Made by a program: the position numbers and the translations under genes. From a virus, in IMG/VR virus record IMGVR_UViG_3300021493_000006, positions 1 to 29,117 of that record: a DNA stretch of 29,117 nt; one strand, given 5' to 3'. Under the pieces are notes generated by a model, which made no database searches, was not told the origin of the DNA, and saw only the letters and a program-made list of their open reading frames with translations. Positions 245 to 27,214 of this stretch are shown piece after piece (the stretch's first letter is position 1; each line of letters opens with the position of its first letter).

Positions 245-997
245 ATGGAAGAAAAACAACCAGAAGAACAATCGTTTTATGTAGTAATTCCAACTTTACT
301 ACTGGAAGATGAGGGAATATCCTTAAAAGCCAAGCGTGTTTATGCTTTAATCTCAAGTTTATGTAAAAAAGAGGGCTATTGCTGGGCTTCCAATAAATTT
401 TTAGCCAAAACTCTGAAAATGCCTTTATCTACGGTTAGATTTTCACTAAAGAAATTAGAAGAGAAAAAATGGATAAAGTCGGAAGTCAATAAAGAGGAGG
501 GAAACAGCAGGAGGATTTTTCTAAATATGCCCGATTTTTATCACACCTATGCCAACAAATTAGCAGAGGGCTATGCTAACGCCCCCGAACAAAAAAAACA
601 GAGGTATGCTAATGCTCCCGAACAAAAAATTCCTAATAATAATATAGATAATAATAAACATATAACTATATTAAAAGATATAGGGAAACAAGTTTCATAC
701 GGCAACCCTGATATAAACTCCTTAATGGATTTCTTAAAAGAAAAACTTGGTGGTTCGCCAGACGGGACAATTAAAGAAAACCGCCGATATGCCTACCTTT
801 TGCTTAAAAGAATAAAAAAAGATTACCCCCAGCGGGACAGCGTGAGTATAATTAAATTCCTTATTCAGGCAGGGCTACAAGACAATTTTCACGGCAAGAA
901 CCTTACAAGTTTCAAATACCTTTACAAAAACGCCCAAAAGATAATTCAAACCATTAAAGGTCGGCTTAAAAATCCAAAGTACATTAAGTTAGATTAA
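245..997 (+). CDS. helix-turn-helix protein, replication-initiator-like
   Basis: A 250-residue protein. Residues about 8-95 read as a winged-helix domain of the kind found at the N-terminus of phage replication organisers and plasmid initiators: FYVVIPTLLLEDE, then AKRVYALISSLCKKEGYCWASN, then a recognition-helix segment LPLS-like (MPLSTVRFSLKKLEEKKWI). A linker follows that contains YANAPEQK twice and a run of Asn, then a helical C-terminal domain rich in Lys. I chose the ATG at 245; a TTG at 230 is also in frame but lies inside the upstream hairpin. AGGAG sits only one base before the ATG, too close for a normal ribosome site. The role in replication is inferred from domain type and first position in the early operon. 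A transcriptional regulator is the alternative. Confidence 0.6.
   Translation: MEEKQPEEQSFYVVIPTLLLEDEGISLKAKRVYALISSLCKKEGYCWASNKFLAKTLKMPLSTVRFSLKKLEEKKWIKSEVNKEEGNSRRIFLNMPDFYHTYANKLAEGYANAPEQKKQRYANAPEQKIPNNNIDNNKHITILKDIGKQVSYGNPDINSLMDFLKEKLGGSPDGTIKENRRYAYLLLKRIKKDYPQRDSVSIIKFLIQAGLQDNFHGKNLTSFKYLYKNAQKIIQTIKGRLKNPKYIKLD
956..963 (+). repeat. AAAGGTCG element 1
   Basis: Exact copy within the last codons of the gene at 245-997 (encoding KGR). Its GG is 41 bases before the ATG at 1000. Context is TTAAAGGTCGGCTTAAAA. Confidence 0.6.
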
Positions 998-999
998 AT

Positions 1000-1341
1000 A
1001 TGACAAGAGAACTTTCTAAAAACTTAATGTGTATTTTAGTAAGGGGCGGAATAGAGATATGGTTAGAGGAAGGAAAGGCAAGGCGATTTCAACAGATATT
1101 ACAAAATACTAATGGTGATTTTATAGAAATAGGTGGAGAATCAATCAATAGGCGTGATATCACCGGGGTATTTAAGGCAACAACAATGGAGGATGCAACC
1201 CGGCGAAAAAATGGTCAGTGGAAGTGCAAATATAACACATGGCATAGTAAAGGAGAAGAATGCCATTGTGCAGAATTGCAAAGATATAAAACCTTTAAAA
1301 CTTATGATAAAGGGTTTGCGAGCATCCAAAAAAATAGTTGA
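1000..1341 (+). CDS. small putative zinc-binding hypothetical protein
   Basis: A 113-residue protein whose ATG lies two bases after the previous stop. The N-terminal half looks like a small beta domain (CILVRGGIEIWLEEGKA, then QQILQNTNGDFIEIGGESIN). The C-terminal half carries Cys and His in the pattern C-x5-H-x5-C-x-C (CKYNTWHSKGEECHC, about residues 75-89), which suggests one metal site. The last 38 bases overlap the next gene in another frame. No family recognised. The tight spacing suggests it is cotranslated with the HTH protein upstream. Confidence 0.55.
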   Translation: MTRELSKNLMCILVRGGIEIWLEEGKARRFQQILQNTNGDFIEIGGESINRRDITGVFKATTMEDATRRKNGQWKCKYNTWHSKGEECHCAELQRYKTFKTYDKGFASIQKNS

Positions 1342-1633
1342 GGAGATCCTTCGGGATTACCCCGAAACCCGCAGTTCTGATAAAAAGTTATTCTTAAAAG
1401 TGCTGGAAAGATTTGGTCTCACCCTAACAGACGAGCAAAAGAGAAAATTCCTACAGATACCTATCTCCTACGAGTCGGTTAGAAGAAGCAGGCAGAAAAT
1501 CCAAAACGAGGAGGGCAAATACCTTCCCGATGAGAAGACCTTAAAAGCAAGGCAGTGGGAGAGAGACGCAATGAAGCACGCAATGTTGTCAGAGGAGGAG
1601 AAGTGGAGAAGGTTTAGTGAGATGTGCTTATAG
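1304..1633 (+). CDS. conserved-looking phage hypothetical protein
   Basis: A 109-residue, charged, mostly helical protein. A frame extends upstream to 1133, but the codons before 1304 overlap the previous gene almost completely and look like a shadow. I therefore place the start at the ATG at 1304 (a TTG at 1316 is also possible). The segment YESVRRSRQKIQNEEGKYLP resembles a motif I associate with small phage-encoded hypotheticals; I cannot name the family. A strong promoter begins eight bases after the stop, so this gene probably ends the first early operon. Confidence 0.6.
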   Translation: MIKGLRASKKIVEEILRDYPETRSSDKKLFLKVLERFGLTLTDEQKRKFLQIPISYESVRRSRQKIQNEEGKYLPDEKTLKARQWERDAMKHAMLSEEEKWRRFSEMCL

Positions 1634-1640
1634 GACTTAC

Positions 1641-1669
1641 TTGACAAAATTTTGATAGTTTGGTAGAAT
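1641..1669 (+). promoter_or_regulatory. sigma70-type promoter P1
   Basis: TTGACA at 1641-1646, 17-base spacer, TAGAAT at 1664-1669. The spacer contains TTGATAGT at the same place as P2. The expected RNA start (about 1676) is only three bases before the ATG at 1679, so the transcript would be leaderless or nearly so. Confidence 0.7.
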
Positions 1670-1678
1670 TGGGGCAGT

Positions 1679-1840
1679 ATGCGTGAAAAAAGAGAAAGAA
1701 ACAAAATAATAATTGAGAGAATAAAGCGGGGAGATTTCTTAATGGACATCGCCCGTGAGTTTAACATTAGCCCCTCCCGAGTGTCAAAAATCAAGAGGCA
1801 TTATTTGATAGAGAAAAAGAAGGACTTGACAAAAACTTGA
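1679..1840 (+). CDS. 53-residue helix-turn-helix regulator candidate
   Basis: The protein is basic and consists of little more than one helix-turn-helix: IKRGDFLMDIAREFNISPSR, followed by the recognition-like SRVSKIKRHYL. This resembles the DNA-binding helices of resolvase/Hin or sigma region-4 type proteins. It sits between two near-identical promoters (P1 before it, P2 overlapping its last codons), a usual place for an autoregulator. There is no room for a ribosome site between the predicted transcript start and the ATG, which suggests leaderless translation. Function as a repressor or early switch is inferred from size, fold and position only. Confidence 0.6.
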   Translation: MREKRERNKIIIERIKRGDFLMDIAREFNISPSRVSKIKRHYLIEKKKDLTKT

Positions 1841-1854
1841 TAGTGCGGTATAGT
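1826..1854 (+). promoter_or_regulatory. sigma70-type promoter P2
   Basis: TTGACA at 1826-1831, 17-base spacer, TATAGT at 1849-1854. It overlaps the 3' end of the 53-residue HTH gene. The expected RNA start is near 1861, immediately before AAAGGTCG element 2. Shares TTGACAAAA and TTGATAGT with P1. Confidence 0.7.
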
Positions 1855-1863
1855 AAAGGCAGA

Positions 1864-1871
1864 AAAGGTCG
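1864..1871 (+). repeat. AAAGGTCG element 2
   Basis: Exact copy at the very start of the transcript predicted from P2. Its GG is 42 bases before the ATG at 1909. It is followed by AGGAAATTCCT, whose arms AGGAA/TTCCT are complementary. Confidence 0.6.
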
Positions 1872-1908
1872 GGGAGAAGGAAATTCCTAAAAACCAAGAA
1901 GAGAGAAA

Positions 1909-2169
1909 ATGAAAAAAAATATGAAGAGAAAAAGATTTTATACAATAACAAAACTTGGAAAGAGTGTAGAAATTGTGGGGAGTGTAGATAATTTAGAAAG
2001 GGCAAAGAGGATAGCAAGGAGAGTTGCAGAAAAAGCAGAAAAAGAAGAAGTATTTGATGGAGTGTTTATAGATAAAATATTGCTGAACGAGTATGATGGC
2101 AAATATAGAGTGGATAGGAGTTGGGAGTTAGATGTCTATACTGGTTATCAGCCTTGGGCATTAGAATAG
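1909..2169 (+). CDS. small basic hypothetical protein
   Basis: An 86-residue protein beginning MKKNMKRKRFYTITKLGKSV; the second Met (codon 5) is an equally possible start. It alternates a beta-type N-terminus with an amphipathic basic helix (NLERAKRIARRVAEKAEKEE) and ends in aromatic residues. No family recognised. GAGAG lies just upstream as a weak ribosome site. It is the first gene transcribed from P2. Confidence 0.5.
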   Translation: MKKNMKRKRFYTITKLGKSVEIVGSVDNLERAKRIARRVAEKAEKEEVFDGVFIDKILLNEYDGKYRVDRSWELDVYTGYQPWALE

Positions 2170-2284
2170 TTGGCTTCTGGCTCTCCTTCCTCGCAGAAGC
2201 GGGAGGGAGAGACGAGGGGCTAACCCTCAAAAAGGTCGGCTCAAGGAAAAGAGCATAAAACCAAAAAGGTCGTTAAAGAAAAAT
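2170..2284 (+). promoter_or_regulatory. structured gap with interleaved inverted repeats and two AAAGGTCG elements
   Basis: GCTTCTG 2173-2179 pairs with CAGAAGC 2194-2200. CTCTCCTTCC 2181-2190 pairs with GGAGGGAGAG 2202-2211 (10 pairs, one G-U). The order is A, B, A', B'. A further hairpin GAGGG 2214-2218 / CCCTC 2224-2228 follows, then exact AAAGGTCG copies at 2231-2238 and 2265-2272. The second copy has its GG 17 bases before the ATG at 2285. No promoter of the P0-P2 type was found here, so I read it as a leader or intercistronic RNA element. Confidence 0.5.
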
Positions 2285-2515
2285 ATGAACAAAGAAAACA
2301 AAGAATTCAGACAAAGAGTAGAGATGATAAAAGACATAGCCAAAACCTACGGGAGGACCAAGGGGGCAACAGAGTTAGGCAAAAAATACGGACTTTCAAA
2401 ACAGCGAATACAGCAGTTAGTTACAATTCTCCGAAGGAGAGGAGTAAATATCCCTCATATTCGGTATCGTGGAGCAATAGAAACCGCTGTCAAAGAACTA
2501 AAAAACAACCTATGA
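2285..2515 (+). CDS. helix-turn-helix protein, sigma region-4-like
   Basis: A 76-residue basic protein. Residues about 17-52 (IAKTYGRTKGATELGKKYGL, then SKQRIQQLVTILRRRG) form a helix-turn-helix typical of sigma region 4 or MerR/Cro-type single-domain regulators. It lies after the structured gap with two AAAGGTCG elements and ends in an ATGA junction with the next gene, so the two are probably translationally coupled. Regulator role inferred from fold; target unknown. Confidence 0.55.
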   Translation: MNKENKEFRQRVEMIKDIAKTYGRTKGATELGKKYGLSKQRIQQLVTILRRRGVNIPHIRYRGAIETAVKELKNNL

Positions 2516-2664
2516 CAAGAGAACAAATAAACCAAATAATCAGAGTTTGCGGATTAGGCTTTGATTATTGGGACATCCCGCCGCTTTGGAGAAAAGACAT
2601 CTCCCAAGACGACTGGGAATTCTCCGAAGAAGCGGAGCGGGAAAAACAATTAAAAGGTCGCTAA
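2512..2664 (+). CDS. 50-residue hypothetical protein
   Basis: The start ATG overlaps the upstream stop (ATGA). The protein begins MTREQINQIIRVCGLGFDYW and is acidic toward the end (SQDDWEFSEEAE) before the basic tail KQLKGR. That tail and its stop are encoded by AAAGGTCG element 5 (2653-2660). No domain recognised. It resembles other short, aromatic, acidic phage early proteins that bind host proteins, but this is only a size and composition argument. Confidence 0.5.
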   Translation: MTREQINQIIRVCGLGFDYWDIPPLWRKDISQDDWEFSEEAEREKQLKGR

Positions 2665-2738
2665 AATGGTTGCAGGGACTTGAGAAGGAGATTTTGGGCG
2701 ACCATTTTTCTCCTTCTCAAATCTCTTGCCAAAACTAA
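2652..2738 (+). promoter_or_regulatory. AAAGGTCG element 5 followed by an interleaved double stem
   Basis: AAAGGTCG is at 2653-2660. Stem A pairs AAAATGGTTGC 2663-2673 with GCGACCATTTT 2698-2708 (11 pairs, one G-U). Stem B pairs TTGAGAAGGAGA 2680-2691 with TCTCCTTCTCAA 2709-2720 (12 perfect pairs). A' and B' are contiguous at 2708/2709, and both connecting loops are six bases. Stem A ends in a T run and is terminator-like. GGTCGC of the element (2656-2661) could also pair with GCGACC 2698-2703, giving a third option. The gene at 2739 follows 18 bases later. Confidence 0.55.
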
Positions 2739-3572
2739 ATGAAAAAAGAAATTAGAGAAGTTAAAACAATAAACAAAGAAAAAATTATTCAAATTACTAC
2801 TTTAGATGAGAGATGGTATGCGAAGTCAGTTATAGACCCTCAAACAAATTTACCGAAGTATATTTTCTATCCCTCTGTTACTTGGATTAGTTCTTATTAC
2901 CCTAAAGGAATTGCTTTCTATAAGTGGTTAGCAAATAAAGGCTGGGAAGAGAGTGAAGCGATAAAGATTTCAGCAGGGGAAAAAGGTTCAAAAATCCACC
3001 AAGCCACACAAATGATTGATGACGGCAAAGAGGTAGCAATGAATGATAAGTTTATCAATCCTACCACGATGGAGTTAGAAGAACTCACTCCCGAGGAATA
3101 TAAAGCAGTGATGGATTTTACAGAGTGGCTTGATATAACAAAGCCAGAATTACTTGCAAACGAGATAACGGTTTTCGGTGATGACTATGCTGGAACAATA
3201 GACAGGATTTACAGGATAGACGGGCAAATCTGGATAGTTGATATTAAAACAGGTCAAAACATCTGGGAAGAGTATAAATTGCAGTTAAGTGCATATAGCC
3301 ACGCAAATATAGATTACAAAGAATTAAAGATTACTGACAAAGAATGGCAGAATAGAAAATTAGCAATTTTGCAGATTGGTTATCATCGGAATCAAAGGGG
3401 ATATAAATTTACAGAAGTAGAGGATAAATATGATTTATTCAGAATGGCAAGGCAAATCTGGGAAAATGAAAATCCGAATGCAAAGCCTGACCAAGCCAGT
3501 TATCCGCTTCGGCTTGCCTCAAAGATAAGAGCCAAAAAGGTCGCAAAGACAAATAAAACTAAAAAACTATGA
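2739..3572 (+). CDS. PD-(D/E)XK nuclease, RecB/Cas4-like exonuclease
   Basis: A 277-residue protein. Visible nuclease motifs in order: a helical segment with GEKGSKIHQATQ (about residues 81-92, the conserved His region), GDDYAGTIDRI (about 147-157, first metal Asp), WIVDIKTG (about 165-172, the D-x-K core) and KLQLSAYSHA (about 178-188, the Q-xxx-Y motif). This set is typical of RecB-family and Cas4-like exonucleases that phages use to resect DNA ends for recombination. The tail is very basic (KIRAKKVAKTNKTKKL) and is encoded partly by AAAGGTCG element 6. It is coupled by ATGA to an SSB-like gene, which fits an exonuclease plus single-strand-binding pair. Confidence 0.8.
   Translation: MKKEIREVKTINKEKIIQITTLDERWYAKSVIDPQTNLPKYIFYPSVTWISSYYPKGIAFYKWLANKGWEESEAIKISAGEKGSKIHQATQMIDDGKEVAMNDKFINPTTMELEELTPEEYKAVMDFTEWLDITKPELLANEITVFGDDYAGTIDRIYRIDGQIWIVDIKTGQNIWEEYKLQLSAYSHANIDYKELKITDKEWQNRKLAILQIGYHRNQRGYKFTEVEDKYDLFRMARQIWENENPNAKPDQASYPLRLASKIRAKKVAKTNKTKKL
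3536..3543 (+). repeat. AAAGGTCG element 6
   Basis: Exact copy in the last codons of the nuclease gene. Its GG is 30 bases before the ATG at 3569. Confidence 0.55.
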
Positions 3573-3976
3573 AGGTTCAAAAAAGAGTTTCAATTCAAGG
3601 AGATTGGGCCAAAAAAGGAGAGGATATTAGAGATGGAGACATTATTACAATCAAGGATAGCGGGCAGATTATCTCTGGGGATTATGGAGACAGGTATGTT
3701 TTTAAGATAGAAACGAGAAACGGAGAAAAGTTGCTGACGTTTAATCAGACATCTATAAATAATTTGATAGATGCCTATGGAGACGAAACAGGAAACTGGG
3801 TAAACAAAGAAGTAAAGGTTTGGATTGTAAAACAAAATGTTGCTGGGAAATTGAAAGATGTTATATACCTGACTGCTCCGGATTGGGTGGAAGGAGAAGA
3901 TGGGTTTGTTCCTCCAGAAAAGAAGGAAGATAAAGATATTCCTGTGATCAATGAAGAAAGCGATGTTCCTTTATGA
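3569..3976 (+). CDS. OB-fold / SSB-like protein with acidic tip
   Basis: A 135-residue protein. Residues 1-100 are rich in predicted beta strands (DIITIKDSGQIISGDYGDRY, KVWIVKQNVAGKLKDVIYLT), consistent with an OB-like fold. The C-terminus is acidic and ends INEESDVPL. Bacterial single-strand-binding proteins end in an acidic tail with a D-x-P-F-type tip that recruits partners; SDVPL is similar but has Leu instead of Phe. The gene overlaps the nuclease stop by ATGA and is followed at once by the SWIM protein. I infer a recombination single-strand-binding protein. The fold assignment is by eye and not certain. Confidence 0.5.
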   Translation: MKVQKRVSIQGDWAKKGEDIRDGDIITIKDSGQIISGDYGDRYVFKIETRNGEKLLTFNQTSINNLIDAYGDETGNWVNKEVKVWIVKQNVAGKLKDVIYLTAPDWVEGEDGFVPPEKKEDKDIPVINEESDVPL

Positions 3977-4290
3977 GGGTTATAAGAGTGCCGGCACAAT
4001 CTGTGTTTCAATGGAGAGTTCCCAGTAAATCAAAAAAAGGGAAATATCATATTGTTAGTTGGTCAAAGGATGAAGGTTATGTCTGCGATTGTGAAGGATA
4101 TGCTTGGGCTAAAAAACACGGGCACGATTGCCGGCATATTAGACAGGTTAAAAATTATTTTAAGGGATTAATTTATGAAGGAGAAAATTATAAACGAAAA
4201 TCTACTGAAAGTGAGCGGGAAGTTCCCGATAGACCGTCAATTAGAACTCGGGGAGGATTTAGAAATACGATTGAAAGGCGGAATAGTTAA
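3973..4290 (+). CDS. SWIM-type zinc-finger protein
   Basis: A 105-residue frame starting in an ATGA overlap. Residues 24-60 contain KYHIVSWSKDEGYVCDCEGY and HGHDCRHIRQV: the C-x-C ... C-x-H signature of a SWIM zinc finger, a domain seen in recombination and DNA-repair partner proteins. The last about 38 residues (serine-, arginine- and proline-rich) overlap the next gene in another frame and look unstructured, as if the original stop had been lost. Position after the nuclease and SSB-like genes suggests a recombination accessory role. Confidence 0.65.
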   Translation: MRVIRVPAQSVFQWRVPSKSKKGKYHIVSWSKDEGYVCDCEGYAWAKKHGHDCRHIRQVKNYFKGLIYEGENYKRKSTESEREVPDRPSIRTRGGFRNTIERRNS

Positions 4291-4366
4291 AAAGGAGATT
4301 TTAGATAACCAAGATGGAAGCGTGAATGTAGTTTATATTATTAAGCCAACAGAAATAGAATTATGA
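4175..4366 (+). CDS. 63-residue hypothetical protein overlapping the SWIM gene
   Basis: It overlaps the preceding frame by 116 bases. Its own start looks good: AAGGGA lies about seven bases before the ATG at 4175. The C-terminal half (LEIRLKGGIVKKEILDNQDG, then SVNVVYIIKPTEIEL) reads as a compact beta protein and looks more protein-like than the competing frame. It ends in an ATGA junction. No family recognised. Confidence 0.55.
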   Translation: MKEKIINENLLKVSGKFPIDRQLELGEDLEIRLKGGIVKKEILDNQDGSVNVVYIIKPTEIEL

Positions 4367-4536
4367 GAATGGGAACATATCACATCTGTAAAAAGTGTCT
4401 CGCCCCGATAACAAGAAACGAGGTAGAGATGACAATTGAGGTAAAAGGTAAAAAGGAGTTCGTGGGCTACTTCCACCGCCACTGCGCCGAGGAGGTAGCC
4501 CAAAGAAAGAACTCAAAATACTTCAAACGAGTATGA
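4363..4536 (+). CDS. 57-residue zinc-ribbon-like protein
   Basis: Starts in an ATGA overlap and ends in another at 4533. It begins MRMGTYHICKKCLAPITRNE and contains YFHRHCAEEV. The spacing CxxC ... HxxHC gives one complete candidate zinc site, similar to small LIM-like or treble-clef modules. The rest is basic. No family named. Part of an unbroken coupled chain from 2739 to 5155. Confidence 0.55.
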   Translation: MRMGTYHICKKCLAPITRNEVEMTIEVKGKKEFVGYFHRHCAEEVAQRKNSKYFKRV

Positions 4537-5155: not shown

Positions 5156-5201
5156 ACAATCCCGCTCGGCAGACCTTAAGGCTGGCAGGGAATTAAAAAG
5201 T
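5156..5201 (+). terminator. imperfect intergenic hairpin
   Basis: CCC 5161-5163 with GGG 5188-5190, GC 5164-5165 with GC 5185-5186, CAG 5170-5172 with CTG 5182-5184, and CC/GG closing a TTAA loop. Bulges interrupt it and there is no T run, so it may be a processing or stabilising hairpin, not a true terminator. Confidence 0.3.
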
Positions 5202-5492: not shown

Positions 5493-5514
5493 TCTATCTA
5501 AACTAAATAAACCT

Positions 5515-6599: not shown

Positions 6600-6605
6600 A
6601 CTAAA

Positions 6606-7812: not shown

Positions 7813-9363
7813 ATGAGATACCAAAAATCATCAGAATATACTCTTATCTCCTACGAGAAAGAGAAACTAAAAAAAGGAATAGACAAGGTATGCGATGTGG
7901 TAAAACTAACCTTGGGAAGCGCCGGCAGGAATGTGATAATTGAAAGACCCGGCAGAGTGCCGAGGATCACAAACGACGGCGTTTCAGTTGCTCGGCAGAT
8001 TATTTTGCAAGACCCAGTAGAAGATTTAGGCGCTCAATCTGTAATCAATGTGGCAGTCAAAACCAACCAAGAAGTAGGAGACGGAACAACCACCTCCATG
8101 GTTTTGGCCCAAAAAATAGTTGACAAGGTATGGAAAAAACTGGCTGAAAGCGAACACCTAATCCGAAAAGAGGGAAATGTCATGGATATCTACCGCCAGA
8201 TAGACAAAGAATGCCAAGAAGTAGTAGAAAAAATCAAAAAAATATCCCGCCCCGTTAAAAAGAAAGAAGAAGTTGAAAGAGTAGCAATTGTCTCTCTGGA
8301 AAACGAAGAAATGGGAAAGAAAGTAGCAGAAATCATAAACAAATTAGGAAAATATGCTCATGTATCAGTAGAAGAAGGCTTTGCCTCTGAAACCCGAACA
8401 GAAGTAGTCTCCGGTATGAAAATCAAGGGCAAATATATCTCCGAAAAACTGGCTATTACTCCCCGCAAAGAAGCAATTATTGAAGACCCCTTAATTTTAG
8501 TATTCAAAGGACAAATAGAGACCCAGTTTGAATTAAAAGCCGTATGCGACGGATTATTAAAGCAGGGCAAAACCAGTTTGGTTGTAATAGCCGATAGTTT
8601 CAGCAAAGAAATTGAACCCTTTGCGGTTATCAACCTTCAAAAGAAATCATTCTACTGCTTATGCGTCAAAGCGCCAAGTTTAACAACAGAAGAGATGGAA
8701 GATGTGGCTATTTATACCGGGGCTACCTTTTTTGACCCGGCGCAGGACAGAGACTTCCGAAAATTAGGAGTAACTATGGACGACTTCGGCAGAGCCAAAA
8801 AAATCGTAGTAGACAGAAACGACACCTTCATAATCCAAGGAAAAGGAGACAAAAAGAAAATTCAAGAAAGAATTGAAGACCTGAAAGAACAGCAAAAACT
8901 TGAAAAAACAGACATGTTCAGAAAAAGAATAGGCAGGCGAATTTCAGCCCTGTCAGGAGGGGTAGGACTAATAGAGGTGGGAACTGAAACAGATGTAGAG
9001 CGGGGGTATCTTAAACTAAAGGTTGAAGATGCGGTCTGCGCCTGCAAGGCGGCGATGGAAGAAGGAATTGTCCCTGGAGGCGGCTTATGTCTTAAAAGAA
9101 TAGCCGACGAGATGCCGAACGACAGCCTGCTCAAAGAAGCCCTGTCCGCTCCTTATGAGCAAATACAGGAAAACGCCGGCGAAAGCCTTAAAATAGACGA
9201 AAGAAAAATAATAGACCCCGCCAAGGTGGTAAGAGTAGCCCTTCAAAACGCTTGTTCTTTTGCTCAGACCCTTATTACCGTAGAAGCGGCTATTGCTCTC
9301 AACCGAGCCGACCCCCTCAAAGAATTAGGAGAGTATTTAGCCGAAAAGCCATGGGAAAAATAA
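7813..9363 (+). CDS. groEL: GroEL-type chaperonin (phage-encoded)
   Basis: A 516-residue group I chaperonin. Conserved nucleotide residues: ITNDGVSVAR (D55), VGDGTTTSM (D90) and VEDAVCACKAAMEEG (D406) followed by VPGGG. Apical-domain landmarks such as VCVKAPSL-like CLCVKAP are present. It is shorter than the usual ~545 residues. The YGYNA-containing segment near the C-terminal nucleotide pocket is replaced by GESLKIDERKIIDPAKV, and the Gly-Gly-Met tail is missing. No GroES gene is visible in the window. Phage GroELs are known to fold capsid or other virion proteins, sometimes without a phage co-chaperonin. The gene stands directly before the packaging and head genes. I chose the ATG at 7813; no clear ribosome site precedes it. 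Confidence 0.95.
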   Translation: MRYQKSSEYTLISYEKEKLKKGIDKVCDVVKLTLGSAGRNVIIERPGRVPRITNDGVSVARQIILQDPVEDLGAQSVINVAVKTNQEVGDGTTTSMVLAQKIVDKVWKKLAESEHLIRKEGNVMDIYRQIDKECQEVVEKIKKISRPVKKKEEVERVAIVSLENEEMGKKVAEIINKLGKYAHVSVEEGFASETRTEVVSGMKIKGKYISEKLAITPRKEAIIEDPLILVFKGQIETQFELKAVCDGLLKQGKTSLVVIADSFSKEIEPFAVINLQKKSFYCLCVKAPSLTTEEMEDVAIYTGATFFDPAQDRDFRKLGVTMDDFGRAKKIVVDRNDTFIIQGKGDKKKIQERIEDLKEQQKLEKTDMFRKRIGRRISALSGGVGLIEVGTETDVERGYLKLKVEDAVCACKAAMEEGIVPGGGLCLKRIADEMPNDSLLKEALSAPYEQIQENAGESLKIDERKIIDPAKVVRVALQNACSFAQTLITVEAAIALNRADPLKELGEYLAEKPWEK

Positions 9364-9686
9364 TTGACTCTTTAATAAACTATTTGTTAAAATTATACTG
9401 GAAAGAAACCTGGAAAAGAAAAAAGTTAAAAGAACTCTACCAAGCCTATTTAGCAGTCTCGGCAGACTACGAAGCGCAGACAGAACTCTTATTTAACCAG
9501 AAAGACGCAAGAGAAAAAATAACCAGACTTCTGGACGCAGAAATAAAATCAGACGACTGGCTCAAACTCAAAAAGAAACTAAAAGAACAAGACGATGAAA
9601 TAGAAAAAACAGAACAAAGAATTGAAAAAATCCAAGAAAAAGAAGAACAAATCAGACGCCTTATGTCAGCCATAGAAAAAATATAA
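9351..9686 (+). CDS. coiled-coil hypothetical protein downstream of GroEL
   Basis: A 111-residue protein, starting 13 bases before the GroEL stop (a longer frame from a TTG at 9252 is a shadow of GroEL). N-terminus MGKIIDSLINYLLKLYWKET may sit on a membrane surface. Residues 60-111 are a long charged coiled coil (KLKKKLKEQDDEIEKTEQRI). Translational overlap suggests it is made together with GroEL. It is not a GroES, which is a beta-barrel. Function unknown; an adaptor is one speculation. Confidence 0.6.
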   Translation: MGKIIDSLINYLLKLYWKETWKRKKLKELYQAYLAVSADYEAQTELLFNQKDAREKITRLLDAEIKSDDWLKLKKKLKEQDDEIEKTEQRIEKIQEKEEQIRRLMSAIEKI

Positions 9687-9693
9687 AAGGTCG
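9686..9693 (+). repeat. AAAGGTCG element 7
   Basis: Exact copy that begins on the last base of the upstream stop. Context TAAAAGGTCGCTTATTAAAA; GG is 27 bases before the ATG at 9716. Confidence 0.6.
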
Positions 9694-11927: not shown

Positions 11928-11988
11928 AGCGGGCAAACTGCTTTTTCTAAGCCTTTTTGGCTTGGAGAAATTGGTTTGCCCGCTTTTT
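11928..11988 (+). terminator. strong intrinsic-terminator hairpin before portal
   Basis: 26 positions 11928-11953 fold onto 11959-11984 with only two mismatches and three G-U pairs around a TTTTT loop. The base of the stem is AGCGGGCAAAC / GTTTGCCCGCT, followed by TTTT. A second GCGGGCA at 11905-11911 can compete for the 3' arm (11977-11983), and 11891-11897 can pair with 11902-11907. These are the elements of an attenuator. It ends 10 bases before the portal ATG. Confidence 0.7.
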
Positions 11989-11998
11989 AATAAAAAAC

Positions 11999-13987
11999 AT
12001 GATTGGTCAATTACCGCTAAAACAAGACGGCTCAATAGATTACGAAAAACTGACCCCGTCTGAGTATCAGCCCTCGGAAGAGGTAAAAAGACTTACCCAG
12101 ATGATAAGAGACGATTACACTATTGGCTGGGACATCTTAAACAGGCCGTTTACGGAATTCAACAACAAGTCCATGATAGAGAGGATGAATATTGACCAAA
12201 AAGCCTTCAACTCCTATGTCCAGCCAAAGAGTACCGACCCCACAATAGCATGGCGCTGGAACGGAATAAGACCTATTACGAGAAACAAACTGCTTGCTAT
12301 TGCTGCCCATGTGATTGCCCTTATGCTTTACCCCGAGGTGGTTGCTCAAAACGACATGGACGAACTGGACAAAAAGGCAGCTCAGATTATGAAATACCTC
12401 ATGGAGTGGCTGATAAGAAATTCAGACTATGAGATTAGTTTCCTTTATGCGGTTATTGCCGCTTTGGTCAACCCAGTGGCTTACTTGGAGGCGGAGTATG
12501 TAGAAGCAGTCCAAAAAATCCGCAAAAGAAACGAAAAAGGCGAAATAACCTTTGAGGAGATGATAGACGAGACAATTTCAGGGTTTCAGGTTCACAACAT
12601 CCCGGCGGATGAGATTTTAATTGCCAATCCTTACGAGTATTATCTCCAAAGGCAGAGATTTATTATTAGGCGAAAATTTGTAGAATACGACGAAGCAAAG
12701 GCAATTTACGGAGACCATCCAAACTTCCAATATGTCCAGCCCGGAGTAAGATGCTTTTTAGAGGATAGTTCCGGCATGTTTTACGAGCAGAAGGACGACC
12801 AACTGGGAAGTTTATGCGAGGTGGTAATCTACAAAAACCGCAGGGAGGATCTTGAGGTTCACTATGTCAACGGCATCTACATGGGAGACGAGGATGTGGA
12901 AAACAATCCTATCCGCCATAGAGACTACCGGGGCGCTCCTAAATACAACTTGGTAAAATTCGGCTATCACCCGATAGATGAAAAAAGATTTTACTTCTAC
13001 AAGTCAGCCGCTTTTGAATTGTCAAACGACCAAGAATTGGTTGACAAAATCTGGAGGCTGTTTATTGACGGGAGTTGGCTTGAAACGATGCCCCCGACAG
13101 CGGTAATAGGCGGGAAAAAACTTGGCTCCAACATCATGTTCCCCGGAGCGGTAACCAACCTTCCCAGAGAAGCGGACATCAAGTCGTTAAACCCCCAAAG
13201 AAATCTGAACGCAGCGGTAAACGCACTGGCTCTAACGGAAAAGTCTATGGAGGAGACAAGCGTCTCCCGAACCTTGGAAGGAGAAGTCGCTGGCGAAAAA
13301 AGGACAGCCTTTGAAATAGCCAGAGCGGAAAGGAACGCCAGAATTCAACTGGGGATTTTTGGTAAGATGGTGGCCGCTATGGTAAAAGAGTTCGGCGAGT
13401 TGATGGTTGATATCATCATAAACCATCTGACAATCGCTCATATTCAGGAGACAACCGGCGGAGCGGTTCAGATGACCTACAGAACCTTCCTTTTGCCCAA
13501 CCAGAGCGAAAACGGCAGGACAATTACCAGAAAAATTAGATTTGAAGGGGAGTTAATCGGCAAAATTATGAGCGAAAAAGAAAGGGAAAGAGAAAGTTTC
13601 AAGGTTTTGGCGGAGGAAGGCGGACCAGAAGGAGAATTAAGATTGTATCGGGTAAACCCTGCTCTGTTTAGGAGATTAAAGTTTTTGATTTATGTTGAGA
13701 CAGGCAACCTTCTGCCAAAAAACGAAGCCTTTGAGCAAATTCTAAAACTTGAAAAATACGACAGGTTAATTCAAAACCCCTTCATCAACCAAGAGCAGGT
13801 AACGAGAGACTTCTTGGTAGAACCGCTGACCGGCGGAGAAGTTGACAAATACATGAGAAAAGGAGACTTTATCCAAAACCAGATATTAAATCTGCCGGAA
13901 ATCAAAAAGAGAGCGGTGTCGCCGGAAACAGGCGAACCTTCCTCTCCAAGGTCGCTGGCAGGCATGTTAGAGAGAGAAGCCTTATAA
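11999..13987 (+). CDS. portal protein
   Basis: A 662-residue head vertex protein. I place the start at the ATG at 11999; an in-frame TTG at 11957 lies in the terminator loop and is unlikely. The protein begins MIGQLPLKQDGSIDYEKLTP and contains the helical core of podovirus-like portals (LYAVIAALVNPVAYLEAEYV, NIPADEILIANPYEYYLQRQ) and a long C-terminal helical part (ETSVSRTLEGEVAGEKRTAF). It forms the dodecameric ring for DNA entry and exit. Order after terminase supports the call. The ATG has no Shine-Dalgarno and directly follows the hairpin. Confidence 0.85.
   Translation: MIGQLPLKQDGSIDYEKLTPSEYQPSEEVKRLTQMIRDDYTIGWDILNRPFTEFNNKSMIERMNIDQKAFNSYVQPKSTDPTIAWRWNGIRPITRNKLLAIAAHVIALMLYPEVVAQNDMDELDKKAAQIMKYLMEWLIRNSDYEISFLYAVIAALVNPVAYLEAEYVEAVQKIRKRNEKGEITFEEMIDETISGFQVHNIPADEILIANPYEYYLQRQRFIIRRKFVEYDEAKAIYGDHPNFQYVQPGVRCFLEDSSGMFYEQKDDQLGSLCEVVIYKNRREDLEVHYVNGIYMGDEDVENNPIRHRDYRGAPKYNLVKFGYHPIDEKRFYFYKSAAFELSNDQELVDKIWRLFIDGSWLETMPPTAVIGGKKLGSNIMFPGAVTNLPREADIKSLNPQRNLNAAVNALALTEKSMEETSVSRTLEGEVAGEKRTAFEIARAERNARIQLGIFGKMVAAMVKEFGELMVDIIINHLTIAHIQETTGGAVQMTYRTFLLPNQSENGRTITRKIRFEGELIGKIMSEKERERESFKVLAEEGGPEGELRLYRVNPALFRRLKFLIYVETGNLLPKNEAFEQILKLEKYDRLIQNPFINQEQVTRDFLVEPLTGGEVDKYMRKGDFIQNQILNLPEIKKRAVSPETGEPSSPRSLAGMLEREAL
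13947..13954 (+). repeat. near-copy of the AAAGGTCG element (CAAGGTCG)
   Basis: One mismatch. Lies in the last codons of the portal gene with its GG 41-42 bases before the ATG at 13991, the same spacing as elements 1 and 2. Confidence 0.3.
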
Positions 13988-13990: not shown

Positions 13991-14365
13991 ATGGTTTCAA
14001 AAAAGCAAAGGGCCTGGATTAAAAACTTAAGAAAGGCTCGGCAAGCGCTTAAAAAGTCTGCCAAAAAGTATATGCGGAAAAAGGGAAAGACCAAAGGGAA
14101 AACAATTGCTACCCCTGTTAGAAAAAGAACAGCCACTATTATTGAGAAAAAAAGAGGCAAGAGAAAAAAAGTAATTAAAAGATACCGCTTTCCGATGCCG
14201 GACAAACCTCACGCCCGCAACGCTTTAGCAAGACTGTCCCAAGCCAAGGGATTAAGCAGGGAGGAAAAAATAAAAATTATAAAAAGGGCTTGCCGAATTT
14301 TAGCCAGAGGGCAGGAAAAAGGATACTTTGCCAAGTGTTGCAAAAAGCACGGCGTAAAGGTCTAA
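13991..14365 (+). CDS. basic HARNALAR-motif phage protein (DUF6582-like)
   Basis: A 124-residue, very basic protein. The N-terminal 70 residues are Lys/Arg-rich and look disordered (KSAKKYMRKKGKTKGKTIAT). The C-terminal part FPMPDKPHARNALARLSQAK, then GLSREEKIKIIKRACRIL, matches a small domain often found near capsid-assembly genes or fused to phage prohead proteins. Here it stands alone between portal and scaffold. Role in assembly inferred from context; biochemical function unknown. Starts three bases after the portal stop. Confidence 0.6.
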   Translation: MVSKKQRAWIKNLRKARQALKKSAKKYMRKKGKTKGKTIATPVRKRTATIIEKKRGKRKKVIKRYRFPMPDKPHARNALARLSQAKGLSREEKIKIIKRACRILARGQEKGYFAKCCKKHGVKV

Positions 14366-14371
14366 AGGTCG
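14364..14371 (+). repeat. AAAGGTCG element 8
   Basis: Exact copy beginning within the stop codon region of the previous gene, which itself ends GTAAAGGTCTAA. Context TAAAGGTCGCTTAATAG; GG is 30 bases before the ATG at 14397. Confidence 0.6.
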
Positions 14372-17331: not shown

Positions 17332-17521
17332 CGGTTAAGGGAGGATGAAACGGCCCTGCCGAGGATTCCTCTTCTGCCACGACCACTAAACCGGATATTT
17401 GCCAATAAACAGTTTCCTTGTGCTGTTCGTCTGTCGGGGGGAGTTTGCCTCGTCTCCCCCTGACGACGAGGCAAGATGAACAGCAAAAAGGTCGATAAAT
17501 AAAAACATAAACATAAAAAAG
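17332..17521 (+). promoter_or_regulatory. highly structured gap after the capsid gene
   Basis: Three stems fill 17421-17485: outer TGCTGTTCGTC 17421-17431 / GATGAACAGCA 17475-17485; A GTCGGGGGGAG 17433-17443 / CTCCCCCTGAC 17454-17464; B TTGCCTCGTC 17445-17454 / GACGAGGCAA 17465-17474. A and B are interleaved with no spare bases, so they cannot both form: a two-state switch inside a common stem. AAAGGTCG follows at 17487-17494 with its GG 32 bases before the ATG at 17522. Upstream, GGGAGG abuts an ATG at 17345 opening a 14-codon frame (MKRPCRGFLFCHDH), a possible leader peptide. CGACC 17380-17384 could pair with the GGTCG. Confidence 0.55.
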
Positions 17522-22393: not shown

Positions 22394-22398
22394 ATTCT

Positions 22399-24096
22399 AT
22401 GCCAACAACCTACTACAAAAAATGGGACCAAGGACGAGTAAGATTATTTGACCCAACAGGAAGAGAATTAACCACTACCGAGGAACAGCAGAGAGCCTTA
22501 AAATCTGTAGGCAATGATATTTCCAAGATTCCAAACCTGCCATATCTGCCGATTATCAAGCCCAAAACCGAGAAAAAAGAACCGCTTATTATTGACAGCG
22601 AAGAAGCCCAAAAAAAAATAAACAAATTCCAAAAAGAAACCGGAGCAGTAATTGGAGAAAAGCCTTCCCCCATCACCTTATGGGACAAAAAGGGCAATAA
22701 GGTGGAAGTATCGCCAAACGAGGTGGAGGAAGCAAAAAAGCGGGGATATGTTTATTTGCAGCAGCCGGAAACAAAGAAAGAAGAACCTACAGAGGAAACA
22801 ACCCTCACCCCGGAAGAACTGGCGGTATTGGGGCTGACCCCGGAAAGTATTGAAGCAGTAGACCAATCCACCGCCCAAGTTCTAAAAAAAGGAGCAGGCT
22901 CTCTGCTGGATTTAGAAGAAGATATTAAATCGGTAAAGAACAAAATCAGCCAAATTTCAACCTCGGAAGAAGACGCCACCTCCGCCTTAATAGACGCCTT
23001 AAAAAGAAATTATGATTACCGCATATCGCAGGTAAGGGACGCCAGCAAGAGATACATCGCCTCCCTTAAAACCTTGGGATACAGGACAGGGGCAATTAGA
23101 TACGGCGGAGAGGTTTTTGGAGGAATTATCTCCACAGCGGAGATGAAAGCCCAGCAGGAAGTAGCCAACTTGGAAGCCGAAAGGGACATGCTTATAGCAA
23201 AAGCGAAGCAAGCCCTCTATGACAAGCAGTATGACAAATTCGCCGAAGAATTGGGCAAACTTGAAGAAAACCGCCAAAAGAAAATAGAAGCCCTGATGAA
23301 GTTATACCAAGAGAGTTTTAAGAAAAACCAAGAATTAGAACAAAAAAAAGAAGAAATAACCAAAGAAAACAACATCATAGCGGCAATCCAGCAGTATGAC
23401 ACCAAAGACCCTGCCGAGTTGTTTGCAAAGTTGAACTACGACGAGACAACAGGCGAGTGGGTGGGCGGCTATACCTTGGATGACATAGAGAAGGTTCTTG
23501 AAAAACTGCCCAAAGAAAAAGAGGAGGAATTTAAGGTGCTTGACGGCGTGCCTTACCGGGTTCTTCGGGACAAAGACGGCAAGGTTACCGGCTTTGAGAA
23601 AATCCCTGGCGTGGAAAAGGAAGAAGATGTAAAGTGGGCAAACGGCATTCCTTATCGGGCAGTGAGAGACGCTAAAGGAAACATCATCCGATACGAGAAA
23701 ATCCCCGGCGTGGAGAAAAAGGAGGAAGAAAAAACGGTGAAGTGGTCTGAATGGGCGGCAAAGCGTGGCTTGGTAGGTCTGCCCTACGAGGAAGCCCAAG
23801 ACCTTTTAACAAGGGAAACCCCTCCCAAGTGGTTCAAACAAAGAATAAGAGACGCCCTTATGGAAGCAATCGCCGAACGAGAGAAAAGAAGCAGAGAGCC
23901 GACAGAGGAAGAATATCAAGCCGCTTGGGATGAGGCAAGAAAGCCAATTCTGCAAACCAAAGAGCCAAAGTCAAAAGACATAGACGCCCTTATTTGGGAG
24001 TGGCTTGGAACTTATGGAGACCAATTTTCAGATGAAGAAAAGAGAAAACAAATAATGAGGATGGGGGCAAACCCCGAGGATTTTGGAATTTATTGA
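22399..24096 (+). CDS. large coiled-coil virion protein
   Basis: A 565-residue protein, mostly charged coiled coil. N-terminus MPTTYYKKWDQGRVRLFDPT; residues ~165-300 form a long helix (NYDYRISQVRDASKRYIASL, LGYRTGAIRYGGEVFGGIIS, EVANLEAERDMLIAKAKQAL). Residues 382-414 and 415-447 are two tandem ~33-residue repeats (GVPYRVLRDKDGKVTGFEKI and GIPYRAVRDAKGNIIRYEKI). The position between fibre and ejection-type proteins suggests an internal virion or injected protein. No enzyme motif seen. Confidence 0.6.
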   Translation: MPTTYYKKWDQGRVRLFDPTGRELTTTEEQQRALKSVGNDISKIPNLPYLPIIKPKTEKKEPLIIDSEEAQKKINKFQKETGAVIGEKPSPITLWDKKGNKVEVSPNEVEEAKKRGYVYLQQPETKKEEPTEETTLTPEELAVLGLTPESIEAVDQSTAQVLKKGAGSLLDLEEDIKSVKNKISQISTSEEDATSALIDALKRNYDYRISQVRDASKRYIASLKTLGYRTGAIRYGGEVFGGIISTAEMKAQQEVANLEAERDMLIAKAKQALYDKQYDKFAEELGKLEENRQKKIEALMKLYQESFKKNQELEQKKEEITKENNIIAAIQQYDTKDPAELFAKLNYDETTGEWVGGYTLDDIEKVLEKLPKEKEEEFKVLDGVPYRVLRDKDGKVTGFEKIPGVEKEEDVKWANGIPYRAVRDAKGNIIRYEKIPGVEKKEEEKTVKWSEWAAKRGLVGLPYEEAQDLLTRETPPKWFKQRIRDALMEAIAEREKRSREPTEEEYQAAWDEARKPILQTKEPKSKDIDALIWEWLGTYGDQFSDEEKRKQIMRMGANPEDFGIY

Positions 24097-24097
24097 T

Positions 24098-27000
24098 ATG
24101 GCTTTAACCTTGGAACAATTTGCCAAACAAAAAGGAGTGAAACTGCCGTCTGAAAGATTAGGGATTGAACTCCCGTCTAAACCTGTCGGGCTGGATGTCT
24201 TTTTGAAACAGAGAATAGGTCTAAAGGAATTGCCCAAAGAAAGAAAAATAGCCCGCCTTCAAGCGGAAGCGGAACAGGCTATGAAAAGAGCGGAATACCT
24301 TTCAAGCCCGGTAGGACTGGCAAAGCAAACCATCAAGGAAATACCGGCCGCCGTTAGAAAGATTGTCAGCAGAAAAGGGCTTTTATCTCCCAAGGGAATA
24401 CAGGCGGCAGTGGAAGGGGCTTTCAGAACAGCGGTTATATCGCCTGTGTCCGCTGTTACCAGATTTGCCACAAAAGGGAAACTGGATATTGAAAAAGGCT
24501 GGGCGGAGTTGACCGAACCTTGGAGAAAAACCCTAACCCCCGCCCAAAAGGAAATAGAAAGAGGTTTTGCGATGGGAGGGCTGGTTGTGCCATACGGAGC
24601 GGCGGAAGCGGCAGCCCTTAAAGGAATTAGTTATCTGGGAAAACTTGAAAAAGTAAAACCAGTTGCTACCTTCTTGTTAAACCGCCCAAAACTATTAAAA
24701 GCAGGCAAGGTAGGAGTTAATATGGCTTCCTTTATAGGGACTGGGCAGATTTTGCACAAACCCGAAGACGGCTCACGGGCTAAACAGGCGATGATAGATG
24801 CGGCTTTGGCGGTTGCCTTCCCGGTAATCGGCTACGCAGTAAGAAAGCCCTTAAAAGCCGGCTTAAAATTGGCGATGAAAAGAGTGGAAAAGGTATTTGA
24901 ACCAATTATTGAAAAAATAAAACTCAAAAAGCCTGTCCCGTTAGAGGAAATAGAAAGAGCGGTAGACCAATCCAAAAAGGTTATCAAAAGAACTACCGGC
25001 AAAAGCCCCGAACAGGTCTTAAAAAAGGAAGTTTTGCCCAAAGCCATCGCAGACTCGGCTAAAAAGGGAGAAATCCCAAAAGGAAAAGCGGTAGCAGAAC
25101 TTGAAAAGACCATCGCCAAAGGAAAAAGACCCACAGACAAGCAATTAGACGCCGCCATAAAGGAACTGGAAAGGAAAATAAAAATCAGGGTAAAGGAAGA
25201 AGCCCCAGAATTGCCCGTAGAGGCGATTTCAAAGCCAAAAAAGCCCGCAGAAGCCAAAATAGAGGGAATTCCTAAGGAAGAAAAGGAAAGAATGTGGCTT
25301 CTTGTAGTAGAAGACAGATATATTCCTACAATTTTTAAGGAAAGAAAAAAGTTGCAAGAAATTTATTTGAGGGGATTAAGAGAAATAAGAAAATACTTTC
25401 CAGATGCAAAAATAGGTTATACAAAATCTTCTGTATTATCTCCTGCGGCCCGTAAAATTCTGCATTTAGTAACAGGAGAACCAGAAGTTCTAATAGAGGC
25501 ACAACCTAAAATATTTTTTAAAGTAAAAAATCACTTATTTTCAATAGGACAGAGTGGAGATTGGCCATTATGTAGAGAAACTTCATCAGGAGCAGTTCGT
25601 ATTGTTAAAACAAAAAGGTATCCATATTTAGCAGAAATTATCGAGATTAAACGGCGAGGACACCATGCAGTTTCCTGGGATTACAAAGCTAAAGTAAGCA
25701 GTTGGATTAGAGATTTAGAAAAATCAGATATTGAGAAACTATTAAAAGTCAAAGAAATTGCAAATAAATTAGGGACAGATGCAGCATTAAATATAGGCGG
25801 AATAGAAACAATCCCCTTTCCAACAGAGTTTCTGGGCATATATAAAAAATTACTTCAGAGTCCAAAAGGAGGAGTAAGAGAAATAAAAGTAGGAGAAATA
25901 AAGAAAATAAGCCCCCCGAAAATAAAACCTTCTGAAGTGAAGAGTTTGCAAGTAAGTGAAATTCCAGTAGTCTCAAAACGCAAGATTCCTTCAGGAATTA
26001 GCGAAAAAGCATTTAGATGGATAGATTTCTTCTTTTTTGGTAGTAAAGCCGAGAGAGAAAAAGCATTCAAGTTATTAACTCCTGAAATAAAGAAAGAAAT
26101 AAGTAAATTTAAACCGAACAAACCAGTAAGGTTATATAAATATCCAGGAGAAAGCGAACTACCTCAGGGATTTACATATTGGACTCATGATAAAGAGTTT
26201 GCACAAAGACTTAGTGGGCCAGGAGAATTTGTTAGTAAAGTTATCAAGCCAAAAGATATACTTGTTGATTTTACAGAAACACCATCAAACTTTCCAGGAG
26301 AAAAGGGAGGAATTTGGGGAAAAGGAGTAATTGTAAAACCCTCTGCAGTCAAAGGAGTAAAGGTAGCAGTCAAAGGAGTAAAAGAAGCCAAACCTATCCT
26401 CAAAGAAACCTGGCAAAAAATCTCCACCTACCCTAAAAAAGGCGACTATGTAAGAGTAAACTGGAAAGGCAAAACCTTTGAAGGTAAAATAACAGGCGAA
26501 AAACCCGTCAGATTTAGAACTGGCTATGTGGCAAGGGAGATCACCACCAAAGAGGGAGTTAAAAAGTGGATGCCGTGGACTTCATCGGCAAAATACGAGG
26601 TAAAAGTAGAGAAGCCAGCAAAAACCAAACCAGTAATAAAAGTAGAAAAACCAACACCCGAAATCAAGCCAAAGCGAATAAAAGTCCCTTCCGAACAACT
26701 GCCGGTAGGAGAAGGCAAAGAATTAGCAAGCCGTCTTGAAAAGAGAATAGTTGAAAGATTAAGCAAAGCCCCCGAAAGATACAAAACGGTCACCTATAAA
26801 CAGATGAACAAGGCGGAGCAAATCAAGAAAGCGGTTGACTATGTTGTCAAGAACGAAAGCGAGGCGATGGAGGTCTTGATGGGCAAAAAAGAGCCTCCAA
26901 AGGGACTGCTTTACAACTCAATCTTTCTGGCGATGGAGGAAAAAGCGAAGCAAGATACCGCTTTAGCGGTAAGATTGGCTTCTTTAAGGGCAACGAGGTC

Positions 27001-27214
27001 AGGACAGGAAATAAGCATCTTAACGGAGGCGGACAAAAACAATCCTGTCAGATTTCTGTCTGAAATTCAAAGAGACAGAGTTAAAATAATCGGCGGCAGG
27101 GAAAAGGTAGTCAAATACACAAAAAGTTTAGTCAAACAGGGGAAAAAGATTTTATCCAAAAACTACTTAAAGGTCGATGAGTGGGAAAACTTTATAAAAT
27201 CTATTCAATGCTAA
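24098..27214 (+). CDS. very large polyvalent-type virion/ejection protein with AT-rich insert
   Basis: A 1038-residue protein starting at the ATG at 24098 (an in-frame TTG at 24083 is unlikely). The N-terminus MALTLEQFAKQKGVKLPSER is followed by helical, Lys/Pro-rich linkers. Residues ~388-749 (DNA 25262-26344) are clearly more AT-rich than both sides and end in a tandem 21-base repeat (GCAGTCAAAGGAGTAAA at 26345 and 26366). The insert contains two domains: an unknown alpha/beta one (MWLLVVEDRYIPTIFKERKK) and one with RLYKYPGESELPQGFTYWTH...SGPGEFVSKVIKPKDILVDFTE, which resembles an ADP-ribosyltransferase fold. Later: RVNWKGKTFEGKI (SH3-like) and helical end. It fits multi-domain proteins injected with DNA. 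ART call is weak. Confidence 0.55.
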   Translation: MALTLEQFAKQKGVKLPSERLGIELPSKPVGLDVFLKQRIGLKELPKERKIARLQAEAEQAMKRAEYLSSPVGLAKQTIKEIPAAVRKIVSRKGLLSPKGIQAAVEGAFRTAVISPVSAVTRFATKGKLDIEKGWAELTEPWRKTLTPAQKEIERGFAMGGLVVPYGAAEAAALKGISYLGKLEKVKPVATFLLNRPKLLKAGKVGVNMASFIGTGQILHKPEDGSRAKQAMIDAALAVAFPVIGYAVRKPLKAGLKLAMKRVEKVFEPIIEKIKLKKPVPLEEIERAVDQSKKVIKRTTGKSPEQVLKKEVLPKAIADSAKKGEIPKGKAVAELEKTIAKGKRPTDKQLDAAIKELERKIKIRVKEEAPELPVEAISKPKKPAEAKIEGIPKEEKERMWLLVVEDRYIPTIFKERKKLQEIYLRGLREIRKYFPDAKIGYTKSSVLSPAARKILHLVTGEPEVLIEAQPKIFFKVKNHLFSIGQSGDWPLCRETSSGAVRIVKTKRYPYLAEIIEIKRRGHHAVSWDYKAKVSSWIRDLEKSDIEKLLKVKEIANKLGTDAALNIGGIETIPFPTEFLGIYKKLLQSPKGGVREIKVGEIKKISPPKIKPSEVKSLQVSEIPVVSKRKIPSGISEKAFRWIDFFFFGSKAEREKAFKLLTPEIKKEISKFKPNKPVRLYKYPGESELPQGFTYWTHDKEFAQRLSGPGEFVSKVIKPKDILVDFTETPSNFPGEKGGIWGKGVIVKPSAVKGVKVAVKGVKEAKPILKETWQKISTYPKKGDYVRVNWKGKTFEGKITGEKPVRFRTGYVAREITTKEGVKKWMPWTSSAKYEVKVEKPAKTKPVIKVEKPTPEIKPKRIKVPSEQLPVGEGKELASRLEKRIVERLSKAPERYKTVTYKQMNKAEQIKKAVDYVVKNESEAMEVLMGKKEPPKGLLYNSIFLAMEEKAKQDTALAVRLASLRATRSGQEISILTEADKNNPVRFLSEIQRDRVKIIGGREKVVKYTKSLVKQGKKILSKNYLKVDEWENFIKSIQC
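25262..26344 (+). other. AT-rich inserted segment within the large virion gene
   Basis: Codons change visibly from GC/A-mixed (GCC, CCC, AAG) to AT-rich (TTA, ATA, AAA, AGA) near 25262 and return near 26390. The reading frame stays open throughout, and the right edge carries the 21-base tandem repeat. I read it as a domain cassette acquired by recombination. Confidence 0.5.
27169..27176 (+). repeat. AAAGGTCG element 10
   Basis: Exact copy in the last codons of the large virion gene. GG is 44 bases before the ATG at 27216. Confidence 0.55.

What the first reader, a model, noticed from the sequence alone, without database searches (positions are those of the whole stretch)
956..27176. Recurrent + strand element AAAGGTCG before many starts
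Ten exact copies: 956, 1864, 2231, 2265, 2653, 3536, 9686, 14364, 17487, 27169. All are on the + strand; the reverse complement CGACCTTT was not seen. All lie in the last codons of a gene or in the gap before the next one. The distance from the GG to the next ATG is mostly 27-45 bases (41, 42, 30, 27, 30, 32, 44), with exceptions at 17 and 83. Near-copies sit at 13947, 15089, 15792 and 20927. Equal base frequencies would give about 0.4 copies in this length. The wider form is TAAAAGGTCGCTTA. Position argues for an RNA-level signal in 5' leaders: a standby ribosome site, processing site, antitermination site (CGCTTA faintly resembles boxA) or phage-protein binding site. AAAGG alone could mimic a Shine-Dalgarno, but the spacing is too long for normal initiation.
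Basis: partly seen in the sequence, partly recalled or inferred. Interest (0 to 1): 0.8.

Follow-up and report, generated by a model that had tools for sequence, protein, structure and literature searches.

The report
Strict leader signal in CPR bacteria, phages
The repeated word AAAGGTCG in this phage is an exact eight-letter signal shared with its probable bacterial hosts, a group of tiny CPR bacteria whose ribosomes have lost the usual start-site reader; there it sits in the leaders of apparently highly expressed genes and probably helps ribosomes find them.

Summary
In detail: 10 exact AAAGGTCG copies, all on + (about 1 expected), all just before gene starts. The element is not phage-specific. 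Phages with portal proteins mostly 45-65% identical keep it at the same places, and one such contig sits in a 'Candidatus Microgenomatus' MAG. In that MAG's order (121 genomes), TATAAT followed by AAAGGTCG occurs 320 times against 60 for a reversed control. In pooled host genomes it is the most start-associated 8-mer, ahead of the -10 box. All 8 bases matter. Its distance to the ATG begins sharply at 16 nt and mostly ends by about 43; most longer gaps contain hairpins. It precedes HU, pilin, MscS-like, DUF378, KhpA and DnaK genes. The 16S rRNAs read in this order lack the anti-Shine-Dalgarno CCUCC. Of 30 HU leaders there, 25 carry AAAGGTCG and none an SD; in class relatives with canonical tails, 4 of 29 carry it and 12 of 29 an SD. 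The rRNAs examined offer no conserved complement. Best reading: an mRNA leader signal, probably read by a protein, that promotes translation initiation from just outside the ribosome footprint, also used by phages. The mechanism is inferred and the factor unknown. I found no published description.

The parts
956..963 (+). AAAGGTCG copy 1, in the last codons of the 230-997 replication-initiator-like gene, 36 nt before ATG 1000
1826..1854 (+). sigma70-type promoter TTGACA-17-TATAGT, 9 nt upstream of copy 2
   Evidence: sequence
1864..1871 (+). AAAGGTCG copy 2, near the predicted 5' end of the mRNA, 37 nt before ATG 1909
2231..2238 (+). AAAGGTCG copy 3, intergenic, first of a tandem pair, 46 nt before ATG 2285
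2265..2272 (+). AAAGGTCG copy 4, second of the pair, 12 nt before ATG 2285 (below the usual 16-nt minimum)
2653..2660 (+). AAAGGTCG copy 5, last codons of ORF 2512-2664, 78 nt before exonuclease ATG 2739
2680..2720 (+). core hairpin between copy 5 and its start codon (gap folds with z -5.9), shortening the effective distance
3536..3543 (+). AAAGGTCG copy 6, last codons of the exonuclease gene, 25 nt before ATG 3569
9686..9693 (+). AAAGGTCG copy 7, overlaps the stop of ORF 9252-9686, 22 nt before ATG 9716
14364..14371 (+). AAAGGTCG copy 8, overlaps a stop codon, 25 nt before ATG 14397; counterpart copies in the portal-downstream leader of L075, L076, L077 and L143
15088..15095 (+). degenerate copy TAAGGTCG where L075, L076, L077 and L079 have exact copies
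17487..17494 (+). AAAGGTCG copy 9, intergenic, 27 nt before ATG 17522; conserved in L074 and L133
27169..27176 (+). AAAGGTCG copy 10, last codons of the 24083-27214 gene, 39 nt before a 24-codon ORF

Best explanation
AAAGGUCG is a cis-acting mRNA leader signal of one order of Patescibacteria (CPR) bacteria and of phages that infect them. It lies within the transcript, upstream of individual cistrons, normally at least 16 nt from the start codon, which puts it just outside the 5' edge of an initiating 30S subunit. I infer that a sequence-specific RNA-binding protein, or a ribosomal protein near the mRNA exit, recognises it and recruits or anchors the 30S subunit, raising translation of selected genes in a lineage that has lost SD:anti-SD pairing. 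Shown: exact sequence, strand, position, spacing limit, clade distribution, gene classes, anti-SD loss, no conserved rRNA complement in the rRNAs read. Inferred: that it acts in translation initiation, that it raises and does not lower expression, and that a protein reads it.
For: Top-ranked 8-mer before gene starts in G324, G298, G331 and related phages. Pooled hosts: 31/85 copies against a 2.4% background, every single-base variant at background. Order-wide 320 versus 60 control matches. Sharp onset of spacing at 16 nt, absent for reverse-complement and shuffled words. Hairpins in most long gaps. Copies inside operons at ends of upstream genes, without promoters. Conserved gene classes: pilins, HU, MscS-like, DUF378, KhpA, DnaK, uL10. 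HU leaders: 25/30 with element and 0/30 with SD in the order, versus 4/29 and 12/29 in canonical-tail relatives. CCUCC absent from 13/13 readable 16S tails of the order. No conserved 16S complement and none in the one 23S read.
Against: Only a few percent of host genes carry it, so most genes start without it. Three canonical-tail genomes (G443, G487, G495) also have it before HU, so it is not strictly a replacement for SD. The effect is weak by the ranking test in G040 itself (4/31, rank 313), and no 16S tail was recoverable for G040. Window copy 2265 lies only 12 nt from its ATG. No factor identified and no expression data.
Confidence: 0.6

Rival explanations
1. RNA processing or stability site: a sequence-specific endonuclease cuts at AAAGGUCG, or a bound protein blocks decay, giving each cistron a defined, stable 5' end some distance from the AUG.
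For: Strict sequence, RNA strand specificity, intercistronic positions and highly expressed genes all fit.
Against: Gives no clear reason for the sharp 16-nt limit to the ATG or for hairpins filling long gaps; copies close behind promoters would need cutting a few nt from the 5' end.
Confidence: 0.22
2. DNA-level element: a transcription-factor site or part of a promoter for an alternative or phage-modified RNA polymerase.
For: Enriched a short distance downstream of TATAAT-like boxes.
Against: Spacing from the -10 box is variable, 9 of 10 window copies lack a convincing promoter, orientation is fixed, and the distance rule refers to the ATG.
Confidence: 0.1
3. Alternative Shine-Dalgarno: AAAGGUCG pairs with CGACCUUU in an rRNA.
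For: Anti-SD lost in the order.
Against: No CGACCUUU in the 16S loci read, and near-complements are not conserved; none in the one 23S read; variants that could pair through G-U are not used; distance is too long for the classical geometry.
Confidence: 0.04
4. Phage-specific protein-binding site.
For: High density in the window and conserved positions in relatives.
Against: The same element precedes host genes across an order.
Confidence: 0.02

Closest known systems
Shine-Dalgarno sequence
   Same: Short purine-rich leader word upstream of start codons, oriented, before single cistrons
   Different: 16-43 nt away and not 5-10; no complement at the 16S 3' end, which lacks CCUCC here; exact 8-mer with no tolerated variants; carried by a small share of genes
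Standby sites and translational enhancers (S1-bound A/U-rich leaders, phage T7 gene 10 epsilon; from general knowledge)
   Same: Lie upstream of the ribosome footprint and are thought to raise initiation
   Different: Those are loose A/U-rich or structural features, or proposed to pair with 16S; this is a strict 8-mer without rRNA complement
Anti-SD-less bacteria described earlier, e.g. SR1, Wolfebacteria, Campbellbacteria and Peribacter (PMC10783764)
   Same: 16S tail without CCUCC and scarce SD
   Different: No replacement leader word is reported for them in the passages read
boxA / phage antitermination sites (from general knowledge)
   Same: Oriented leader RNA element
   Different: No boxA-like extension conserved; found before single cistrons inside operons

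Membership tests
Shine-Dalgarno sequence | Complementary to the 3' end of 16S rRNA | tested here: not met
   13 readable tails of the order lack CCUCC, most ending GUGGAUCAAUUAAA; no complement to the element there
Shine-Dalgarno sequence | About 5-10 nt before the start codon | tested here: not met
   Enrichment starts at 16 nt
Translational enhancer / standby site | Lies upstream of the ribosome footprint in the mRNA leader | tested here: met
   Gap spectrum 16-43 nt; hairpins in most longer gaps
Translational enhancer / standby site | Raises translation of the downstream gene | not testable with these tools
   No expression data; only an association with probably abundant proteins
sigma70 promoter element | Fixed spacing to -10/-35 boxes | tested here: not met
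   Variable distance from TATAAT; 9 of 10 window copies without a convincing promoter
boxA antitermination site | Conserved boxA-like sequence next to the element | tested here: not met
   No conserved flank
Structured RNA leader / riboswitch | Conserved secondary structure or Rfam match | tested here: not met
   No Rfam hit in the window; element pairing no different from shuffled controls
RNA processing site | RNA ends or cleavage at the site | not testable with these tools
   Needs 5'-end mapping

The most novel reading that the evidence does not exclude
A lineage of bacteria that abandoned the Shine-Dalgarno interaction marks selected, highly expressed genes with a separate, exact 8-nt RNA word read by a dedicated protein just outside the ribosome: a different principle of bacterial start-site selection, adopted also by unrelated phages of these bacteria.
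Probability: 0.5. Interest if true: 0.93.

Novelty: new variant of a known kind. Interest (0 to 1): 0.85.

Why it matters
How bacteria without an anti-Shine-Dalgarno sequence choose their start codons is an open question. This gives a concrete, testable cis-signal in an order of uncultured CPR bacteria. It also gives a sequence handle for linking uncultured phages to CPR hosts and for correcting gene starts in these genomes.

Tried and rejected
Chance or composition: rejected. Phage-only signal: rejected once host copies were found. Phylum-wide CPR signal: only 37 of 192 genomes had a TATAAT-anchored match, with no visible excess over control, and no excess in 51 class members with a canonical 16S tail (34 vs 46). 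Base pairing with 16S or 23S: rejected for the genomes read. Conserved structure around the element: none. Rfam: nothing. Extension CGCTTA: not conserved. My pattern for anti-SD-less tails across the class was too strict and found only 6 genomes, so anti-SD loss was not mapped across the class. Ranking k-mers near TATAAT or near any ATG without gene calls was too noisy. Literature: searches for CPR, Patescibacteria and Shine-Dalgarno found no such leader signal; of 395 papers containing the string, only 20 were listed and none of those titles or abstract openings concerned it.

Full report
OBSERVATION. AAAGGTCG occurs ten times on the + strand of the 29,117-base window at exactly the listed positions, and its reverse complement not at all. 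Dinucleotide shuffles give 1.04 on both strands on average, and none of 100 reaches ten. All ten copies end 12-80 nt before a called gene start, a zone covering 8.5% of the window. Four copies lie in gaps between genes, the others in the last codons or over the stop codon of the preceding gene. Only the copy at 1864 follows a convincing sigma70 promoter (TTGACA-17-TATAGT).

WHAT THE WINDOW IS. The window is a whole IMG/VR viral record. Its called genes lie on + and include replication-initiator-like, exonuclease, HNH, GroEL-like, terminase and head genes; I call 11957-13987 the portal from its place and size, as no PHROG matched it. A 98-99% identical contig (L074) keeps both copies it covers (14364 and 17487).

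CONSERVATION IN RELATIVES. Relatives found with the portal and capsid proteins include L075, L076, L077, L078, L079, L133 and L143; portal identities run from 46 to 64%. L075, L076, L077 and L143 carry an exact copy in the leader of a gene just downstream of the portal, matching window 14364. L075, L076, L077 and L079 also carry an exact copy where the window has the degenerate 15089 copy. L133 carries one where the window has 17487.

A HOST ELEMENT. L143 is a 20-kb phage contig in a MAG titled 'Candidatus Microgenomatus sp.'. The MAG as a whole (about 0.6 Mb) has 37 copies against 7 of the reversed word. Several lie just after TATAAT-like boxes and 17-40 nt before start codons. Scanning TATAATN{6,30}AAAGGTCG, 100 of 121 genomes of the same order match, with 320 matches against 60 for the reversed pattern. 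The phylum sample shows no such excess. In the class, 51 genomes with a GGATCACC 16S tail show 34 against 46, and the 171 others outside the known order members 182 against 120. So the signal is centred on this order, with some spread to neighbours. The genome service gives no taxon names, so I identify the order only by this MAG.

UNBIASED RANKING. In held host sequence I ranked every 8-mer by how often a gene start follows 14-45 nt later. AAAGGTCG is first of 56,322 in G324, of 28,695 in G298, of 34,317 in G331 and of 13,960 in the related phages. It is third in G311, 24th in G302, fifth in the window, and only 313th in G040, whose G+C is higher. Pooled over six hosts, 31 of 85 copies qualify against a background of 2.4% (log10 P about -28), ahead of all -10-box words, and each of the 24 single-substitution variants scores 0-4 hits. 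All eight positions therefore matter; the flanks do not.

SPACING. The distance from the element's last base to the A of the ATG is nearly empty below 16 nt, jumps at 16-18, and decays by about 43. Reverse-complement and shuffled words show no peak. Phage copies show the same range (15 of 29 in 16-40). From general knowledge, 16 nt is about where the 5' edge of an initiating ribosome lies. Most leaders with longer gaps contain a stable hairpin between element and ATG (z about -2 to -6 in the clear cases, including window 2653-2739 at z -5.9), leaving roughly 14-32 unpaired nt in most of them; the 72 short-gap leaders show no excess structure (mean z -0.04). A few long-gap cases without a hairpin are probably chance copies. 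Distance measured through folded RNA is what one expects of a signal read at initiation.

GENES. Of 73 proteins after the element, Pfam recognises type IV pilins (9), DUF378 (8), T4SS pilins (8), MscS-like channels (6), HU (5), KhpA (3), and single DnaK, uL10, RRM and DoxX proteins. Most are of kinds that are usually abundant or structural (inference). In a direct test on HU genes, 25 of 30 leaders from the order carry the exact element and none an SD. In class members with a canonical tail, 4 of 29 carry it and 12 of 29 match a strict SD pattern. Twenty such tails read in full all contain CACCTCC.

ANTI-SD LOSS. Thirteen of thirteen order genomes whose 16S tail could be read lack CCUCC; most read GUGGAUCAAUUAAA. 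The window's own genes rarely have an SD either. Anti-SD loss in some CPR lineages is known (PMC10783764); I found no description of a leader signal used in its place. Three genomes with intact CCUCC (G443, G487, G495) also have the element 25-44 nt before HU, so the element may predate the loss and is not simply its substitute.

MECHANISM. DNA-level models fit poorly: spacing from the -10 box is variable, most window copies have no promoter, and the distance rule refers to the ATG. rRNA pairing is excluded for the rRNAs read: 16S of about ten genomes and one 23S; variants that could pair through G-U are not used. What remains is recognition of an 8-nt word by a protein at the mRNA exit side of the 30S subunit, probably raising initiation. 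The factor is unknown. KhpA and an RRM protein carry the element in their own leaders and are natural candidates, which is a lead only. RNA processing or stabilisation is the main rival.

LIMITS. A phage-like region in G324 (C1, 1-40 kb) without detectable similarity to the window's proteins also carries several copies, which suggests use by unrelated phages.

Noticed in passing
L236-L247, L249, L251 (16S loci of the order): The 16S 3' end has lost CCUCC (most read GGAUCAAUUAAA) in all 13 readable genomes of the order; class relatives keep CACCUCC.
   Followed up: partly
window 7813-9363; L174:3514-4971: A GroEL-like chaperonin gene in the phage and in a related phage contig (37% identical) next to the head genes.
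   Followed up: no
L077 near 9549 and L079 near 12681: The element is preceded by a short stem whose loop ACCUUU could pair with AAAGGU (pseudoknot-like), which might hide or present the element.
   Followed up: no
L218 near 12637 (23S rRNA of G324): AAAGGTCG also occurs in sense orientation in the 23S rRNA, upstream of the conserved GGGGATAACAGGCTG stretch; possible shared protein site or coincidence.
   Followed up: no
G324 C1 1-40000 (L216, L217): Phage-like gene cluster (tail tube PF18906) without detectable similarity to the window carries several copies of the element.
   Followed up: partly
L216:1538-1822, L309, L312 (KhpA); L299 (RRM protein): Genes for the RNA-binding proteins KhpA and an RRM protein carry the element in their own leaders: candidate readers or autoregulators.
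   Followed up: no
window 1679-1840 and 2285-2515: Two small helix-turn-helix-like ORFs; the second is preceded by a tandem pair of elements, one only 12 nt from its ATG.
   Followed up: no
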